Below are positions 34,742 to 40,793 of a stretch of DNA of 64,000 bases, one piece after another. The notes beneath the pieces were generated by a model. It ran no database searches. It was not told the DNA's origin and was given only the letters and a program-made list of their open reading frames with translations. How positions within the stretch are numbered: position 1 is the stretch's first letter; every line of letters starts with the position of its first letter. Location: the NCBI GenBank assembly GCA_900469625.1, contig UBXV01000001.1:1-64000 (forward strand). Direction: 5' to 3'. The translations under genes and the position numbers were made by a program. This stretch comes from Hyphomicrobiales bacterium. GTDB lineage: Bacteria; Pseudomonadota; Alphaproteobacteria; Rhizobiales; Rhizobiaceae.

Positions 34742-35728
34742 TTACTCGGCCGGAACGGGCTCGCCGCGGGTCTTGACCAGGCTCCAGATCACGCCGGTCG
34801 CGATGATCGCGAAGGTGATGCCGAGCGAGAAAGCCGCCGGGAACTTTTCGAGGCCAAGCAGGTCGGCAACGAAGACCTTCGAGCCGATGAAGATCAGCAC
34901 CACAGCAAGCGCCGGCTTCAGGTAGCGGAAGCGGTGGATCATCGCAGCCAGAGCGAAGTAGAGCGCGCGCAGGCCGAGAATAGCGAAGATGTTCGAGGTG
35001 TAGACCAGGAACGGGTCGGTGGTGATGGCGAAGATCGCGGGTACCGAGTCGACGGCGAAGATGACGTCAGCGACTTCGATCAGCACCAGCGCCATGAACA
35101 GGGGCGTGATGAACCAGACCAGCTTGCCGGTCTTCGGGTCGGCCTGCTTGACGAAGAAGTGCTCGCCATGGTGGCCTTCCGTCACGTTGAAGCGGTTGCG
35201 CATGAAACGCACCAGCGCATTGTTGGAAATGTCCGGGTCGGCCTCCTTCATGAACAGTATCTTCAGGCCGGTCACCACAAGGAATGCAGCGAAGATATAG
35301 AGCAGCCACGAGAATTCAGCGACAAGCGTCGCGCCCACGCCGATCATGATGGCACGCAGAACGATGACGCCGAGGATGCCCCAGAAAAGCACACGGTGCT
35401 GATAGAGCCGGGGTACGGCAAAGAACGAGAAGATCAGGGCGATGACGAAGACGTTGTCGAGTGCCAGCGTCTTTTCGACGACGAAGCCGGTCATATAGGC
35501 GAGACCAGCGTCTGCACCCAGATACCACCAGACCCAGCCGCCGAAGGCGAGACCAAGCGAGATGTAGAGAGCCGAGAGCTTGATGCTCTCGCCAACTTCG
35601 ATCTCTTTGTTTTCCTTGTGCAGAACGCCAAGGTCGAAGGAGAGGATGGCAATCACCAGCGTGATGAAGCCCAGCCACATCCAGATTGGCTTGCTCAGCC
35701 ACTCGATAAACAGGAATGAAAAATCCAC
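34742..35728 (-). CDS. TerC-family membrane protein (Alx-like)
   Basis: Inner-membrane protein of 328 residues with about nine hydrophobic segments. Family hallmarks are SFDLGVLHKENKEIEVGES, EKTLALDNVFVIALIF with the acidic pair, and EVADVIFAVDSVPAIFAI. TerC/Alx proteins export manganese or other metals, or protect against tellurite and alkaline stress. The start codon is GTG 35728 with GGAG nine bases upstream; that GGAG lies in the lower stem of a leader hairpin, so translation is probably regulated by RNA structure. Confidence 0.92.
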   Translation of the reverse strand: MDFSFLFIEWLSKPIWMWLGFITLVIAILSFDLGVLHKENKEIEVGESIKLSALYISLGLAFGGWVWWYLGADAGLAYMTGFVVEKTLALDNVFVIALIFSFFAVPRLYQHRVLFWGILGVIVLRAIMIGVGATLVAEFSWLLYIFAAFLVVTGLKILFMKEADPDISNNALVRFMRNRFNVTEGHHGEHFFVKQADPKTGKLVWFITPLFMALVLIEVADVIFAVDSVPAIFAITTDPFLVYTSNIFAILGLRALYFALAAMIHRFRYLKPALAVVLIFIGSKVFVADLLGLEKFPAAFSLGITFAIIATGVIWSLVKTRGEPVPAE

Positions 35729-35898: not shown

Positions 35899-36789
35899 TC
35901 AGTGGCTTCGCGAGCCCTGGCGCGACCCGGCTCGGCGCGAACGGGCCCCGCAACAATCCTTGTATTTGAGCCCGGAACCGCAGGGGCAGGGATCGTTGCT
36001 GCGTCGCTGCAGCCGGCCAATCAGCGGCAGCATGAGGGCCGACGGCACCCATGCGGCGGCAAACGCTGCCAGTTTTGCCGAGAGGCCGGGGACGACGAGG
36101 CGCCGCCCGGACTTGAACCCACGCCAGGCGCGCTCGGCAACGTAGTCGGCATCGACCTTTGGCAGAACCTTGAAGAGCCGAACGCGATCTGCGCCCGAAC
36201 GCTTGAGGAACTCGGTTGCGACTGGCCCCGGCGCGACGCATGTGACGGTGACGCCGGTATGTCGCAATTCTTCGTGCAGCGCTTCCGAAAAGGAGCGCAC
36301 GAAGCTCTTGCTGGCATAGTAGAGGGCCATGTTGGGGCCGGGCATGAAGCCGGCGATGGAGCCGAGGTTGAGCACGCCGCCGCGGCCGCGCGCCACCATG
36401 CCCGGCAGGAAATGCAGCGACAGGTCGGTGAGCGCACGTATGTTGAGGTCGATGATCCCGAGCTGATCTGGGATCGGCAGCGTTGTCGCCGCGCCGCGCA
36501 GCCCGTAGCCGGCGCTGTTGACGAGGATATCGCAGCAAAGATTGTTCGCCGCCAGAAACGCCGCCAGCCGCGTCGAGGCATCTGCGGAGAAGAGATCGAG
36601 GTCGAGCGTGAACGCTTCGCCCCCGAGCTTGCGGATGTCGTTCGCCGCAGTCTCGAGATCGTCGCGTGACCTGGCGACAAGCACAACCGGGATCCGGTCA
36701 CGGGCGGCAACATTGGCGATTGCGCGGCCGATACCGCGCGAGGCGCCGACGACGACCACGGCCAGGCGGGGTTCAGGCGGAGCCATCAT
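35899..36789 (-). CDS. Short-chain dehydrogenase fused to a C-terminal SEC-C motif
   Basis: Protein of 296 residues. Residues 10-255 form an SDR domain: GASRGIG near 15-21, NSAG near 91-94, Ser144 and Tyr157-x3-Lys161. A hydrophobic stretch near 245-257 leads into a SEC-C zinc motif with Cys268-x-Cys270-x8-Cys279-Cys280 and a basic tail. SEC-C motifs normally end SecA or other protein-binding factors; joined to an SDR they are unusual. The start overlaps the E2-like gene stop by four bases. A lipid or membrane substrate is plausible from the neighbours, but unproven. Confidence 0.87.
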   Translation of the reverse strand: MMAPPEPRLAVVVVGASRGIGRAIANVAARDRIPVVLVARSRDDLETAANDIRKLGGEAFTLDLDLFSADASTRLAAFLAANNLCCDILVNSAGYGLRGAATTLPIPDQLGIIDLNIRALTDLSLHFLPGMVARGRGGVLNLGSIAGFMPGPNMALYYASKSFVRSFSEALHEELRHTGVTVTCVAPGPVATEFLKRSGADRVRLFKVLPKVDADYVAERAWRGFKSGRRLVVPGLSAKLAAFAAAWVPSALMLPLIGRLQRRSNDPCPCGSGLKYKDCCGARSRRAGSRQGSRSH

Positions 36790-37571
36790 GACGTTTTCCG
36801 TGGAAGGGCCGCCGCCTCAGCTGCGTCGCCGTGCCCATGGCCCGATAATTCCATGGCGACCTCACCGTTGAGGATCGCCTCGAATCGCTCCAGGGCACGC
36901 GCAACATTAGCGCCATCCATCACCCGGTGATCGTAGTGGATGCGCACGGTGACCGTGCCGTCTTCGGCGATATGGCCATAGTTGAGAAGCGTCGTGAGGG
37001 GGGTGAGTGGATTGAGCGATTCGGCCCCGAGGCCTGAATAGACCGAGAATTGAAAGGTGCCGAAATAATGGGCGCGGCGGGACCCGAGGTTGAGCCCGAG
37101 CCACATCAACAGCCAGCGAAGCGGCCCGGGCGCGCGGGCAATCTTCAAGGCGCGCTTGAACTCCTTGACCTCGCCTATCGGGCGGGTCCGCGCCGCTTCG
37201 ATATGCGCGGCCAGTTCCGCGATCGAGCGGTGTTCGGGGGCCTTGATCTTGCTCAGGAGGACGACGCGCTCGCCCTCGTATTCGCGTTCGTGGGCCACCG
37301 ACGCCACGCTTTCCGGATACTCGTAGAGTTGCGGCCTTGGAAACTTCACATAGGCGCGCCGGAATTCCGGCACTTCCTGACAGAGGAGCGCATAACCCTT
37401 CAGGAACAGAACAGTCCAGGACGGCCGGTTTGGCTGGGCGAGCCTTGCCCTTCGAAGCGCGTCGATGTTCATTTCCCGCTGAACGGTGACGCGCGGAATC
37501 CCGATTGAGAATCGCATGAGATCGCAGACCAGACGCCGTGGCGCCGAAAGCGTGATCGCACGTCCTCGCAT
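36786..37571 (-). CDS. Stand-alone 2-oxoacid dehydrogenase E2-type acyltransferase domain
   Basis: Protein of 261 residues that corresponds to the catalytic domain of dihydrolipoamide acyltransferases. It carries the DHRVMDG motif (Asp214-His215 to Gly220) and an FQFSVYSGLGAES strand region. Lipoyl and subunit-binding domains are absent and the length leaves no room for them. ATG 37571 follows GAGGTGG; the gene starts ten bases after the methyltransferase stop and overlaps the SDR gene by four. It may transfer an acyl group from CoA to a non-lipoyl acceptor. Confidence 0.8.
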   Translation of the reverse strand: MRGRAITLSAPRRLVCDLMRFSIGIPRVTVQREMNIDALRRARLAQPNRPSWTVLFLKGYALLCQEVPEFRRAYVKFPRPQLYEYPESVASVAHEREYEGERVVLLSKIKAPEHRSIAELAAHIEAARTRPIGEVKEFKRALKIARAPGPLRWLLMWLGLNLGSRRAHYFGTFQFSVYSGLGAESLNPLTPLTTLLNYGHIAEDGTVTVRIHYDHRVMDGANVARALERFEAILNGEVAMELSGHGHGDAAEAAALPRKTS

Positions 37572-37581
37572 CAAGCCACCT

Positions 37582-38175
37582 CTAATACAGATAGGGAACG
37601 AGCCGCTTGGTTCTGTTCATGTAATCGCTGTACTGCGGCCCGAAGATCTCCAGCATCATACGCTCCTCCTTGCCGACCCGTAGAAAGAACAGCACGGCAA
37701 AGCCGGCCAGGCCAGCCAGGCCGGCAACCCAGTTCGGCAACAGAAATGCCTGGCCGAGCCCCATCAGCATGAATGATGTGTACATCGGGTGGCGCACGAA
37801 CGCATAGGGTCCACCGCTGATCAGTTCGTGCTTGTCGCGGATCTCCAGCGTGATCGACCAGTTCCGGCCGAGCTCCTTGTGCGTGCGACGAAAAAACCAG
37901 AGGGCAAAGGCGAACGTCGCCGCGCCAAGGATGACGCCGAAGACGTTGGTCGCATGGTCCGCTTCGGACGGAAAGCCGGTCGCGACATAAATGGCGGGTA
38001 TGACGGCCAGACCGAGCAAGCCCGATCCCAGGCCGAACATGTCGACGGCCGAGCGTCGATTGCTGACGATGCGCACCCGCTTGGCGCGGCGCTCGAACGG
38101 CACGCGAATGAAGTACCAGGCGATGATGCCGATCACCCAAATGATTTTTCCGAGAGTGGCCGTCGATACGATCAC
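37582..38175 (-). CDS. ICMT/PEMT-like membrane methyltransferase
   Basis: Integral membrane protein of 197 residues with about five hydrophobic segments. The C-terminal half has the SAM-binding pattern of isoprenylcysteine carboxyl methyltransferases and phospholipid N-methyltransferases: LGRNWS, ELISGGPYAFVRHPMYTSF and a final EERMMLEIFG. It is the first gene of a three-gene operon with the E2-like acyltransferase and the SDR-SEC-C protein. Substrate unknown; a lipid is likely given the membrane active site. Confidence 0.85.
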   Translation of the reverse strand: MIVSTATLGKIIWVIGIIAWYFIRVPFERRAKRVRIVSNRRSAVDMFGLGSGLLGLAVIPAIYVATGFPSEADHATNVFGVILGAATFAFALWFFRRTHKELGRNWSITLEIRDKHELISGGPYAFVRHPMYTSFMLMGLGQAFLLPNWVAGLAGLAGFAVLFFLRVGKEERMMLEIFGPQYSDYMNRTKRLVPYLY

Positions 38176-38241: not shown

Positions 38242-38829
38242 CTAGCCAGCATTCATCTGCCGAAGCTTGGTAACGAATTGCTGCGGCCTTAGCCAGATGC
38301 TGGGTGTCTTATATCCCATCGATCGTGCGATGTCCGCGACGAATGCATTGCAGTTGTAAACCGACGCCTGCCAGAACTTCGACCTGGCCTTGAGCTTGCG
38401 GATATAGGCGACCGTTTTGTTGTACTCCGATTCGGTCAACATGACGCGCCAGCTCGCGGACCTGTACTGCTCCTCGAGATCGCCGTCGCTGGCACCTGTT
38501 TCGGCTGGCACCGGCAGAAAATGGCCGATCACATAGGGTGTTGCGCTGGGCGTTGCCGGAGCGAGGCCTGCAACTTCGGGATTGATCATGCCTCCCGACT
38601 TGTTGGTTCGCCCGAAAACGACATAGGTGTGCCCATAGCTCAAGGCATAACGCGAGCGGAACTCGATGAAGTAGCCGCTTTCCCGCGCGACGCTTTCGCT
38701 GACAGCGCGTGCGCTGCTGCTGCTGGAAACGAATTTGGGCTGGGGCTTCTGGTCGACGGATTGGCAGCCTGCCGTGGCAAATGCGAACATGGCCACCAGC
38801 ACGAGCGTGCTTCTATGAAGGGGAATCAC
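38242..38829 (-). CDS. Lipoprotein with papain/NlpC-like Cys-His features
   Basis: Protein of 195 residues from GTG 38829, chosen because AGGAG lies ten bases upstream and a lipoprotein signal follows directly (lipobox ending TAGC, Cys22); a longer frame reaches 38940 but would cover the hairpin of the neighbouring gene. Exported as a lipoprotein. His67 in SYGHTYVVFG and Cys160 in YNCNAFVAD form a pattern seen in permuted NlpC/P60-like hydrolases (compare DUF4105-type proteins). Function probably in the envelope; activity not established. Confidence 0.7.
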   Translation of the reverse strand: MIPLHRSTLVLVAMFAFATAGCQSVDQKPQPKFVSSSSSARAVSESVARESGYFIEFRSRYALSYGHTYVVFGRTNKSGGMINPEVAGLAPATPSATPYVIGHFLPVPAETGASDGDLEEQYRSASWRVMLTESEYNKTVAYIRKLKARSKFWQASVYNCNAFVADIARSMGYKTPSIWLRPQQFVTKLRQMNAG

Positions 38830-38910
38830 TGTCCGCGGTCTCCTGAACTCCGATGAGCGCAGTCCGGCAAGCTTGGCAGCATCAGGGCCGGGCCGGGCGG
38901 TTGGAATGAT

Positions 38911-38936
38911 GTGGGAAGGACAATCGTCCTTCCCAC
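38911..38936 (-). terminator. Hairpin after the small lipoprotein gene
   Basis: A perfect 11-base-pair stem (GTGGGAAGGAC with GTCCTTCCCAC, loop AATC) begins 17 bases after the stop of the 44-residue lipoprotein on the minus strand. Confidence 0.65.
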
Positions 38937-38952
38937 CCATCAGATGCTCAAG

Positions 38953-39087
38953 TTACTTGTAGACGGGTGCGGGCTCGGCCGACTCAACTGGCGGCGGGGC
39001 CTTGCCCTTGCCTTTGCCGATAGTATCGCAGCCGCTCAGGCTGACGACGGAAAGCAAGGTAACGATTACGATTAGGTTTCTGCTCAT
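38953..39087 (-). CDS. Small lipoprotein, 44 residues
   Basis: Too short for usual gene calling but convincing: ATG 39087 follows GAGG, a signal peptide (MSRNLIVIVTLLSVVSLSGC) ends in a perfect lipobox with Cys20, and a short mature part follows with repeated Gly-Lys (GKGKGK) and then a Pro-rich tail ending PAPVYK. Small lipoproteins of this GKGK-Pro type are widespread in Rhizobiaceae; their role is unknown. A hairpin ends the gene. It lies upstream of, and on the same strand as, the larger lipoprotein gene. Confidence 0.8.
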   Translation of the reverse strand: MSRNLIVIVTLLSVVSLSGCDTIGKGKGKAPPPVESAEPAPVYK

Positions 39088-39211: not shown

Positions 39212-39802
39212 TTAGATTACCAAAACCTTTGTGCCGACAGGCGTCCGGCCATAGAGATCGACGATATCGTCGTTGGTCAGGCGAACGCATCCGCTCGAAA
39301 CCGCTTGGCCGATCGTCCATGGCTCATTCGTGCCGTGGAGGCGAAACATGGTATCCTGTCCGCCGCGATAGAGATAGAGGGCGGCCGCTCCCAGCGGATT
39401 GTGCGGGCCTCCGCTGACGCCACCGGCATACTGCCGCAGGCGCGGCTTGCGCTCCATCATACTTTCGGTCGGCGTCCACGATGGCCACTCGGCCTTGCGG
39501 CCGATCGAGGCCGGTCCCTTGAGCGTGCGTCCGTCTTCGCCGACAGCGATGCCGTAGCGCCTGGCTCGGCCGGGGCTTTCGATCAGGTAGAGGTAACGCT
39601 CCGCTGTATTGACGATGATTGTCCCGGGCGGTTCGCCGCTGTCATAGGCCACATCGCGGCGGCGATAGCGTGAGGCGGGACCTGAGCCGAAGGCTGAAAG
39701 AATGGGTTCGCCCCATCGTTGCGCCGTTGAGCTGCATCCAGATACCGTTGCAACCAGACTGCCGAGCAAAATCGCGCGGCGGGTAATGCGGCCACTGTCC
39801 AT
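39212..39802 (-). CDS. L,D-transpeptidase (YkuD family), lipoprotein
   Basis: Protein of 196 residues. The N-terminus MDSGRITRRAILLGSLVATVSGC has paired Arg and a lipobox at Cys23, suggesting a Tat or Sec lipoprotein. The YkuD catalytic site is His156 (RLHGT) and Cys172 (SSGCVRL). It makes 3-3 crosslinks in peptidoglycan or attaches envelope proteins. AGGTGG is close to ATG 39802; GTG 39808 is possible. A paralogue lies at 53806, and rhizobia usually carry many such genes. Confidence 0.9.
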   Translation of the reverse strand: MDSGRITRRAILLGSLVATVSGCSSTAQRWGEPILSAFGSGPASRYRRRDVAYDSGEPPGTIIVNTAERYLYLIESPGRARRYGIAVGEDGRTLKGPASIGRKAEWPSWTPTESMMERKPRLRQYAGGVSGGPHNPLGAAALYLYRGGQDTMFRLHGTNEPWTIGQAVSSGCVRLTNDDIVDLYGRTPVGTKVLVI

Positions 39803-40037
39803 ATCCACCTACTAGTAAATCGGTGAGCACTATTTCGTCTTTAGCACTCAAGCGTGCGTCGGCCAAGATGCTATGCTTCGTTAGATGTTGGATATCAGCT
39901 AGTATTACGCGCCAGCACCAAACGGTTGAACTTGATGCCGCATCGATGCCGGTGAGAAAACCCTTGGAAACCCATCAAACTTCTTGCAGCCCGTGCCTGA
40001 CTCTGGTCGATTGGAACGGTAAACGAGGATGAACACG

Positions 40038-40793
40038 ATGAAGCTTGGCTTCGCCAGAAAAGTCGCTCTTGTCACCGGAGCAGGTTCTGGAATTGGTGCC
40101 GCCGTCTCCCGCCAGCTCGGCGAGGAGGGGGCGACTGTTGCCGTGGCGGATATCAACGCAGATGCTGCCCATGCCGTGGCCGCCGAGATTTGCTCGTCGG
40201 GCGGCAAGGCCTATCCGTTCGTGGTCGATGTGGCGGATGCCGAGGCGGTGGAGAATCTGGTCAAGGCGGTTGCGTCGACATGCGAGGGCCTCCATCTCGC
40301 TGTCAACAATGCAGGCGTCGATGGCATCCGCAGATTGACGGCGGACTATCCGCTGGACGAGTGGAAGCGCTTGATGGACGTCAATCTGAACGGCGTCTTC
40401 TACTGTATGAAGTACCAGATCGCAGAGATGCTGCGGCACGATGGCGGCTCGATCGTAAACATGTCGTCGATTCTGGGGTCGGTCGGCCTGCCGACGGCAT
40501 CGGCCTATACCGCGGCCAAGCACGGCATCGTCGGCCTGACGAAGGTTGCGGCCATCGAGTACGGCAAGCGGGGAATTCGAATCAATGCCGTCGGCCCGGG
40601 TCTCATCGAGACGCCCTTGTTGTCAGAGCAATCCGACCTGACGAACAACCGCCGCATGGAAGCACTTCAGCCCATGGGTCGGCGCGGAACGCCTGACGAG
40701 GTCGCGGCGCTCGTCTGTTTTCTTCTGTCTGAGAAGGCGAGTTTCATCTCCGGCAGCTACCATCTGGTGGATGGCGCATTCACCGCCCATTGA
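40038..40793 (+). CDS. Short-chain dehydrogenase/reductase
   Basis: Classical SDR of 251 residues with TGAGSGIG cofactor loop, NNAGVDG, catalytic Ser in MSSILG, and YTAAKHG as the Tyr-x3-Lys pair. It is similar to glucose 1-dehydrogenase and 3-oxoacyl reductase branches. ATG 40038 has GAGG nine bases upstream; ATG 40029 sits too close to it. It stands alone between divergent and convergent neighbours, so the substrate cannot be inferred from context. Confidence 0.87.
   Translation: MKLGFARKVALVTGAGSGIGAAVSRQLGEEGATVAVADINADAAHAVAAEICSSGGKAYPFVVDVADAEAVENLVKAVASTCEGLHLAVNNAGVDGIRRLTADYPLDEWKRLMDVNLNGVFYCMKYQIAEMLRHDGGSIVNMSSILGSVGLPTASAYTAAKHGIVGLTKVAAIEYGKRGIRINAVGPGLIETPLLSEQSDLTNNRRMEALQPMGRRGTPDEVAALVCFLLSEKASFISGSYHLVDGAFTAH

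What the first reader, a model, noticed from the sequence alone, without database searches (positions are those of the whole stretch)
35899..38175. Methyltransferase, stand-alone E2-like acyltransferase and SDR-SEC-C operon
Three genes ten bases apart or overlapping encode an ICMT/PEMT-like membrane methyltransferase, an acyltransferase with the DHRVMDG motif but no lipoyl domain, and an SDR with a zinc motif. None fits a 2-oxoacid dehydrogenase complex. Together they could reduce, acylate and methylate a lipid or terpenoid, a pathway I cannot match to any described one.
Basis: partly seen in the sequence, partly recalled or inferred. Interest (0 to 1): 0.65.

Follow-up and report, generated by a model that had tools for sequence, protein, structure and literature searches.

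The report
Conserved rhizobial envelope-lipid gene cluster
Three neighbouring genes for a membrane methyltransferase, an unusual free-standing acyltransferase and a reductase are real and kept together in many soil bacteria related to legume symbionts, next to three genes for lipid-anchored cell-envelope proteins, so they probably help to finish an unknown envelope lipid or lipoprotein.

Summary
On the minus strand, ICMT (38175-37582), E2L (37574-36786) and SDR-SEC-C (36789-35899) form a tight operon. E2L is a complete E2-type acyltransferase domain (model Z 22.5 to E2 cores), its His/Asp motif in 80 of 80 orthologues, without lipoyl domain. The trio is kept in 79 of the 80 closest named relatives.

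The first five recur in 15 of 15 unnamed Rhizobiaceae loci, the SDR in 11; four of those genomes lack it altogether. ICMT plus thiol lipoprotein recurs in 8 of 31 other loci with a serine-hydrolase-like gene instead. In another family, E2L lies beside a 49% SDR homologue in two of nine loci.

Best reading: an envelope lipid or lipoprotein tailoring module. E2L moves an acyl group from CoA, SDR reduces, ICMT methylates, the lipoproteins act in the periplasm. Substrate and product are not shown. Ten paper searches found no description. New variant of known parts; interest 0.5.

The parts
37582..38175 (-). ICMT/PEMT-family integral-membrane methyltransferase (197 aa)
   Evidence: PF04140, PF04191; NF040696 253 bits over cut-off 160; PDB 4a2n E 1.5e-31; RHP[MI]Y in 80 of 80 orthologues
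36786..37574 (-). E2L: stand-alone E2/CAT-type acyltransferase (262 aa; likely start ATG 37571), His216-Asp220 in DHRVMDG
   Evidence: PF00198 over cut-off, 36 of 36 family members match it at E<=1; model pLDDT 87.5; Z 22.5 to E2 catalytic domains, 15.9 to chloramphenicol acetyltransferase; DHRVxDG in 80 of 80
35899..36789 (-). SDR with C-terminal SEC-C zinc-type tail (296 aa); best family model mycolate reductase, below its cut-off
   Evidence: PF00106, PF02810; NF040690 171 bits, cut-off 380; Ser and Tyr-x3-Lys motifs in 79 of 79
38242..38940 (-). HYP: lipoprotein with a predicted permuted NlpC/P60 (LRAT/PLAAT-like) thiol fold; likely start near 38829; invariant His104 and Cys197 (numbering from 38940)
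   Evidence: Invariant in the 4 rows and, as H69/C162, in the 31 rows; model pLDDT 67; top structural rows TseH Z 9.0, H-REV107 6.5, 3kw0 6.1, PLAAT3/4 5.7-6.0
38953..39087 (-). smLP: 44-aa lipoprotein, lipobox then IGKGKGKAPPP, short variable linker, C-terminal Lys
   Evidence: 80 of 80 trio loci, all ending in Lys; pN/pS 0.03-0.37 against eight loci
39212..39808 (-). L,D-transpeptidase (YkuD), ErfK/LdtE-type, with an RR + SGC (Tat lipoprotein-like) N-terminus by inspection
   Evidence: PF03734; NF047955 LdtE 71 bits, below its cut-off of 480; HGT...SxGCxR motif in 79 of 80 extracted
40029..40793 (+). Divergent SDR (254 aa), often conserved next to the block; membership uncertain
   Evidence: Present in the same place in 76 of 80 named loci and 10 of 15 unnamed loci

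Best explanation
The trio is the cytoplasmic and inner-membrane half of a six-gene rhizobial module that makes or finishes an envelope lipid or lipid-linked molecule. Proposed steps, all inferred from families: (1) the SDR uses NAD(P)H to reduce a 3-oxo or keto group on an acyl chain, in the manner of mycolate reductase; (2) E2L, working like chloramphenicol acetyltransferase or a free E2 core, uses His216/Asp220 to move an acyl group from acyl-CoA to an alcohol, amine or thiol acceptor; (3) the ICMT-family enzyme methylates a carboxyl or hydroxyl of the membrane-embedded product with SAM; (4) in the periplasm the LRAT/NlpC-like thiol lipoprotein uses or remodels the product, beside a transpeptidase and a tiny lipoprotein that may sit at the outer membrane-peptidoglycan interface. 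Step (1) is missing in some genomes, so it would be an optional finish. Shown here: gene order, conservation, folds, catalytic motifs, and the recurrent partnerships ICMT + thiol lipoprotein and E2L + SDR. Not shown: substrate, order of steps, localisation.
For: Gene order conserved in 79 of 80 named loci. Among 151 Rhizobiaceae genomes all 16 with a real E2L (G107, 28%, left out) also have HYP (44 of 151) and smLP (32 of 151), Fisher p 2.7e-10 and 3.9e-13, not corrected for relatedness. Complete E2/CAT fold and motif, no lipoyl match. The ICMT subfamily pairs with HYP in a second operon type with a serine-hydrolase-like gene, 8 of 31 loci; 0 of 80 trio loci have that gene; each type's ICMTs form one group on the tree, which has very long outgroup branches. 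E2L beside a 49% SDR homologue without SEC-C in two of nine loci of another family of the order. A remote E2L (38%) lies in a stretch with a polyketide synthase, a desaturase-like and an ICMT-like gene, named by inspection.
Against: Four of 15 unnamed loci keep E2L without the SDR next to it, and these four genomes have no SDR match at E<=1e-60 anywhere, while a control genome does; one of 80 named loci lacks it too. Seven of nine loci of the other family, counting L045, have E2L with none of the other genes in the stretch read. HYP stands without any ICMT match in 22 of 31 loci and with only a 28% match in one more, some stretches being cut by contig ends. The LDT-smLP-HYP genes are separated from each other and from the trio by longer gaps than the trio's own and can occur without it (L134). 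E2L is patchy: 16 of 151 family genomes. No substrate, lipid or mutant data were available.
Confidence: 0.37

Rival explanations
1. Two or three separate systems lie side by side: an envelope pair (LDT-smLP with HYP), an ICMT that serves HYP, and an E2L-SDR pair making an unrelated metabolite. Conserved order reflects co-inheritance or shared regulation, not one pathway.
For: LDT-smLP-HYP with no ICMT, E2L or SDR-SEC-C match (L134); ICMT-HYP without E2L/SDR in 8 of 31 loci; E2L alone or with SDR only in the other family; larger gaps upstream of ICMT; SDR missing from four genomes with the rest of the block.
Against: The five genes up to E2L are unbroken in 15 of 15 and 80 of 80 loci of two partly overlapping samples, across Rhizobium, Sinorhizobium/Ensifer, Mesorhizobium, Phyllobacterium, Aminobacter and Mycoplana, and in the 151 family genomes a real E2L never occurs without HYP and smLP (16 of 16).
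Confidence: 0.34
2. E2L is an acyltransferase that receives its acyl group from a lipoyl domain of another complex in trans, as recalled for the lipoyl-free E2 domain of actinobacterial OdhA/KGD, and passes it to CoA.
For: OdhA and KGD are among the top structural rows, and the only NCBIfam hit of E2L is the KGD-type model, weakly (E 0.0068). Three lipoylated E2s exist in the genome.
Against: No E1, E3 or lipoyl gene in two annotated neighbourhoods; none of the genome's ten lipoyl/biotinyl matches on contig C32; the genetic company is a membrane methyltransferase and lipoproteins.
Confidence: 0.1
3. The trio modifies the neighbouring lipoproteins themselves (for example smLP): E2L/SDR prepare an unusual acyl group, HYP transfers it like the lipoprotein N-acyltransferase Lnb, and ICMT methylates a terminal carboxylate.
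For: Three consecutive lipoprotein genes by inspection; HYP falls in the LRAT/NlpC structural neighbourhood, and 3 of 31 members weakly match Lnb_N, best E 0.005.
Against: Lnb_N matches are weak and absent in 28 of 31; 4 of 31 match another family, Peptidase_C97, as weakly; no link between smLP and the enzymes other than position and co-occurrence.
Confidence: 0.12

Closest known systems
E2 catalytic domains of 2-oxoacid dehydrogenase complexes (PF00198), incl. lipoyl-free E2 domain of OdhA/KGD
   Same: Fold over the whole protein (Z about 19-22.5), DHRxxDG His/Asp motif
   Different: No lipoyl or subunit-binding domain found, no E1/E3 partner in the annotated neighbourhoods, 12-22% identity, encoded with a membrane methyltransferase and lipoproteins
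Chloramphenicol acetyltransferase and the wider CoA-dependent acyltransferase superfamily (recalled: PapA5, WS/DGAT)
   Same: Fold (1q23 Z 15.9) and, as recalled, stand-alone CoA-type His/Asp chemistry
   Different: Structure closer to E2; no Pfam CAT hit in 36 members; acceptor unknown
Mycolate reductase CmrA (NF040690)
   Same: Best NCBIfam model of the SDR (171 bits) and of its 49% homologue (149 bits)
   Different: Far below the cut-off of 380; SEC-C tail added; no mycolates in these bacteria (recalled)
Protein-S-isoprenylcysteine O-methyltransferase, Ma-ICMT 4a2n
   Same: Over the NF040696 cut-off, E 1.5e-31 to 4a2n
   Different: No prenylated CaaX substrate is expected in rhizobia (recalled); the family name covers methyltransferases of other lipids (recalled)
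LRAT/PLAAT and permuted NlpC/P60 thiol enzymes (H-REV107, TseH, YiiX-like 3kw0), Lnb_N
   Same: Predicted fold and His...Asn-Cys order of HYP
   Different: No Pfam match over cut-off; lipoprotein; activity untested
Braun lipoprotein and its L,D-transpeptidases
   Same: Tiny lipoprotein with C-terminal Lys in 80 of 80 trio loci beside an ErfK/LdtE-type LDT gene
   Different: Much shorter and unlike in sequence (recalled); 10 of 11 relatives outside the trio end in TKG, YKP, ADG or TNG, one ends in Lys

Membership tests
2-oxoacid dehydrogenase E2 component | E2 catalytic domain with DHRxxDG motif | tested here: met
   PF00198 over cut-off; Z 22.5; motif 80 of 80
2-oxoacid dehydrogenase E2 component | N-terminal lipoyl domain and subunit-binding domain in the protein | tested here: not met
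   No lipoyl or subunit-binding match in the window protein or in 36 members; median 27 open codons upstream of the start in 80 loci, maximum 215
2-oxoacid dehydrogenase E2 component | E1/E3 or lipoylated partner encoded nearby | tested here: not met
   The ten lipoyl/biotinyl matches of G000 lie on other contigs; no such gene in the two annotated loci read
CoA-dependent acyltransferase working like CAT | CoA-dependent acyl transfer | not testable with these tools
   Needs enzyme assay
Isoprenylcysteine carboxyl methyltransferase family | ICMT domain over curated cut-off | tested here: met
   NF040696 253 bits, cut-off 160
Isoprenylcysteine carboxyl methyltransferase family | Methylates prenylcysteine | not testable with these tools
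   Needs assay; family membership does not set the substrate
Mycolate reductase (NF040690) | Score over equivalog cut-off | tested here: not met
   171 bits, cut-off 380
Classical SDR | Nucleotide motif, Ser and YxxxK catalytic residues | tested here: met
   Patterns found in 77, 79 and 79 of 79; a strict pattern for the Asn motif in 62 of 79, that Asn being invariant in the 22 rows
LRAT/NlpC-P60 thiol fold (HYP) | Fold with His on a strand before Cys on a helix | tested here: inconclusive
   Model pLDDT 67; Foldseek no hit at E<=0.001; VIA best Z 9.0, the next eight rows 4.4-6.5, below the level of 8 that the tool calls common, though all nine belong to that fold group as I know it
Braun-type lipoprotein (smLP) | C-terminal Lys joined to peptidoglycan | tested here: inconclusive
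   Terminal Lys in 80 of 80 trio loci but absent in 10 of 11 relatives outside the trio; linkage needs mass spectrometry

The most novel reading that the evidence does not exclude
Rhizobia carry a dedicated system that makes a methylated, acyl-modified lipid or lipoprotein anchor for a miniature Braun-like lipoprotein that an adjacent L,D-transpeptidase ties to peptidoglycan; E2L is a free CoA-dependent lipid acyltransferase evolved from an E2 core, interchangeable with a serine-hydrolase module in sister operons.
Probability: 0.08. Interest if true: 0.82.

Novelty: new variant of a known kind. Interest (0 to 1): 0.5.

Why it matters
It would give a function to a gene that is annotated as '2-oxo acid dehydrogenase subunit E2' but does not look like part of a 2-oxoacid complex, and it marks a six-gene envelope module in relatives of tractable legume symbionts (S. 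meliloti 4H41, R. johnstonii, formerly leguminosarum, 3841) that can be deleted and tested. PMC11527210 (passages seen) states that A. [quoted passage not shown] if smLP is tethered, that view would need revision for rhizobia carrying this block.

Tried and rejected
General stress (EcfG-type, consensus recalled) promoter scan: 4 matches in the window against 2.0 expected, none upstream of the cluster genes (one lies inside the SDR on the other strand); dropped. Nodulation link: NodA in 5 of 16 E2L genomes against 5 of 135 others (Fisher p 0.0013, not corrected for relatedness), but the window's own genome has no NodA match, so it is not a symbiosis-only operon. The idea that E2L is the general 3-hydroxybutyryl transferase of rhizobial lipid A: considered from memory; the cluster is patchy even inside one family (16 of 151), so a general lipid A step is unlikely; literature seen as a search listing only. 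smLP as a plain Braun analogue: weakened because 10 of 11 relatives outside the trio lack the terminal Lys. PMC5011921 lists an ICMT among proteins of a rhizobial seed isolate (one table passage seen); I could not tell whether it is this gene. Foldseek alone gave no significant match for HYP. A HYP profile found 2 of 289 class genomes, one being the window's own and the other weak. The SDR missing beside E2L in four genomes was looked for elsewhere in them and not found at E<=1e-60; because of this I lowered the best explanation from 0.40 to 0.37 and raised the first rival from 0.33 to 0.34.
Full report
Observation. Pfam and NCBIfam give ICMT/PEMT over cut-off, the E2 acyltransferase domain over cut-off, and SDR plus SEC-C over cut-off. 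ICMT and E2L are 7 bases apart (10 from the likely ATG), and E2L and SDR overlap by 4 bases. In the relatives the median ICMT-E2L gap is 10 bases (range 6-139) and the 4-base overlap is kept in 73 of 79 loci. Pairwise pN/pS against eight loci is 0.13-0.35 for the three genes, so they are real and constrained.

E2L. A model from 36 rows (pLDDT 87.5) matches E2 cores over residues 1-248 (3mae Z 22.5, 208 aligned, rmsd 2.5; chloramphenicol acetyltransferase 1q23 Z 15.9). All 36 members match PF00198 at E<=1 and none matches a lipoyl domain. The motif [YF]DHRVxDG is in 80 of 80 orthologues. The genome has three ordinary E2s that also carry lipoyl domains, on contigs C29, C52 and C62; none of its ten lipoyl/biotinyl matches lies on the window's contig C32. 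So E2L is a free-standing E2-core acyltransferase. Whether it uses CoA or a lipoyl group in trans is open; the position with a membrane methyltransferase favours CoA and a lipid-like acceptor (inference).

SDR and ICMT. The SDR patterns for the nucleotide site (77 of 79), the Ser (79 of 79) and YxxxK (79 of 79) are kept; a strict Asn pattern is met by 62 of 79, that Asn being invariant in the 22 rows. The SEC-C motif C.CGSG...C is found in 74 of 79; the five others, R. johnstonii (leguminosarum) 3841 among them, end or change before it. Its best NCBIfam model is mycolate reductase, well below the cut-off, a hint at 3-oxo-acyl lipid reduction and no more. The ICMT passes the isoprenylcysteine methyltransferase model and matches Ma-ICMT. 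The own genome's other two relatives are only 25-27% identical.

Conservation. A scan of named genomes found 194 relatives of E2L, of which the best 80 were kept; they are Rhizobium, Sinorhizobium/Ensifer, Mesorhizobium, Phyllobacterium, Aminobacter, Mycoplana and unnamed Rhizobiales. 79 of 80 have ICMT-E2L-SDR in order, and all 80 have the LDT, HYP and ICMT genes upstream; 76 also have the divergent SDR; smLP was found in all 80 with a more sensitive search. These 80 are the closest relatives, so they over-state constancy. In an evenly drawn sample of 151 family genomes E2L occurs in 17 including the window's own, one of them (G107, 28%) a remote protein in a polyketide locus. In the 15 other real cases LDT-smLP-HYP-ICMT-E2L is found in all, and the SDR follows in 11. 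The four genomes without it (G035, G070, G086, G147) have no match to it at E<=1e-60 anywhere, while the control G138 does. So the SDR is the least constant member. Two frames look broken by tblastn offsets: the ICMT of one S. meliloti record (L023) and the SDR of L036. The class and phylum samples gave 4 of 385 and 13 of 398 genomes.

The larger block. Three genes upstream are lipoproteins by inspection. LDT (YkuD; RR...SGC N-terminus) matches ErfK/LdtE-type models below cut-off. smLP is 39-48 aa with a lipobox, GKGKAP box, variable linker and terminal Lys in 80 of 80 trio loci. HYP has no Pfam family over cut-off, but its model, of modest quality (pLDDT 67, core higher), aligns best with TseH (Z 9.0), H-REV107, a Bacillus YiiX-like protein, Aichivirus 2A and PLAAT3/4 (Z 5.7-6.5), the permuted NlpC/P60 or LRAT thiol fold as I know it. 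Only the first row exceeds the Z of 8 below which the tool warns of common arrangements, and Foldseek by itself was not significant. The invariant His and Asn-Cys fit that fold.

Separate partnerships. HYP occurs in 44 and smLP in 32 of 151 family genomes, and each of the 16 genomes with a real E2L has both. Of 31 non-trio HYP loci examined (of 40 found), 8 carry an ICMT of the same subfamily (45-49% identical) together with a protein of about 380-395 aa: seven as hydrolase-ICMT-HYP and one as LDT-HYP-hydrolase-ICMT. Three of these proteins were read; they have an AHSxGA elbow and no Pfam match over cut-off, the best being Lipase_3 at 17.2 of 22 bits. None of the 80 trio loci has that gene. 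On an ICMT tree the trio set (14 rows) and the hydrolase set (8 rows) each form one group, with the caveat of very long outgroup branches. So ICMT and HYP are partners in two architectures, with E2L-SDR and the hydrolase as alternatives. On the other side, in a second family of the order E2L occurs in nine of the sampled genomes; in the nine loci read none has an ICMT, LDT or HYP match, and in two, L171 and L172, E2L is next to an SDR and a 49% homologue of the SDR that ends before SEC-C. This makes E2L + SDR a second partnership, though a minority one there.

Mechanism. I take the block as an envelope lipid or lipoprotein tailoring module. Steps shown: genes, folds, motifs, constancy, partnerships. 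Steps inferred: keto reduction by the SDR (optional, since some genomes lack it), CoA-dependent acyl transfer by E2L, SAM-dependent methylation in the inner membrane, and use or remodelling of the product by the thiol lipoprotein near possible peptidoglycan-tethering proteins. My confidence in this general reading is 0.37; the exact product is unknown. The main rival is that these are neighbouring but separate pathways (0.34).

Literature. Ten searches of the held open-access library listed no paper that describes the operon; most subscription papers are not held. I saw passages of PMC11527210 and PMC12729407, one table passage of PMC5011921, and only listings otherwise.

Verdict. New variant built from known families.

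Noticed in passing
   Followed up: partly
38242-38940 (-): Lipoprotein with a predicted LRAT/NlpC-like thiol fold and no Pfam family over cut-off; 44 of 151 Rhizobiaceae genomes hold relatives, some several copies.
   Followed up: partly
L148:6330-8803, L149:4028-6446, L173, L174, L175, L177, L143, L136: A second operon type, serine-hydrolase-like protein + ICMT + thiol lipoprotein; its literature was not searched separately.
   Followed up: partly
L041:68-12545: Remote E2-like protein (28%) in a type I polyketide gene cluster with FkbH-like and KAS III-like genes (named by inspection) in a Rhizobiaceae genome with a NodA match.
   Followed up: no
L046:1-9646: E2L relative in a stretch with a polyketide synthase, phosphopantetheinyl-transferase-like, desaturase/hydroxylase-like, AlkB-like and ICMT-like genes; names by inspection.
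   Followed up: no
L023 (S. meliloti Ak57): The record is labelled pSymB but is 3.7 Mb and holds metG, tgt and coaD, so it looks like the chromosome; its ICMT frame appears broken and is not annotated.
   Followed up: no
34742-35728 (-): TerC/Alx-family gene downstream of the trio in the window; found within the fetched stretch in only 3 of 80 named loci, so not part of the block.
   Followed up: yes
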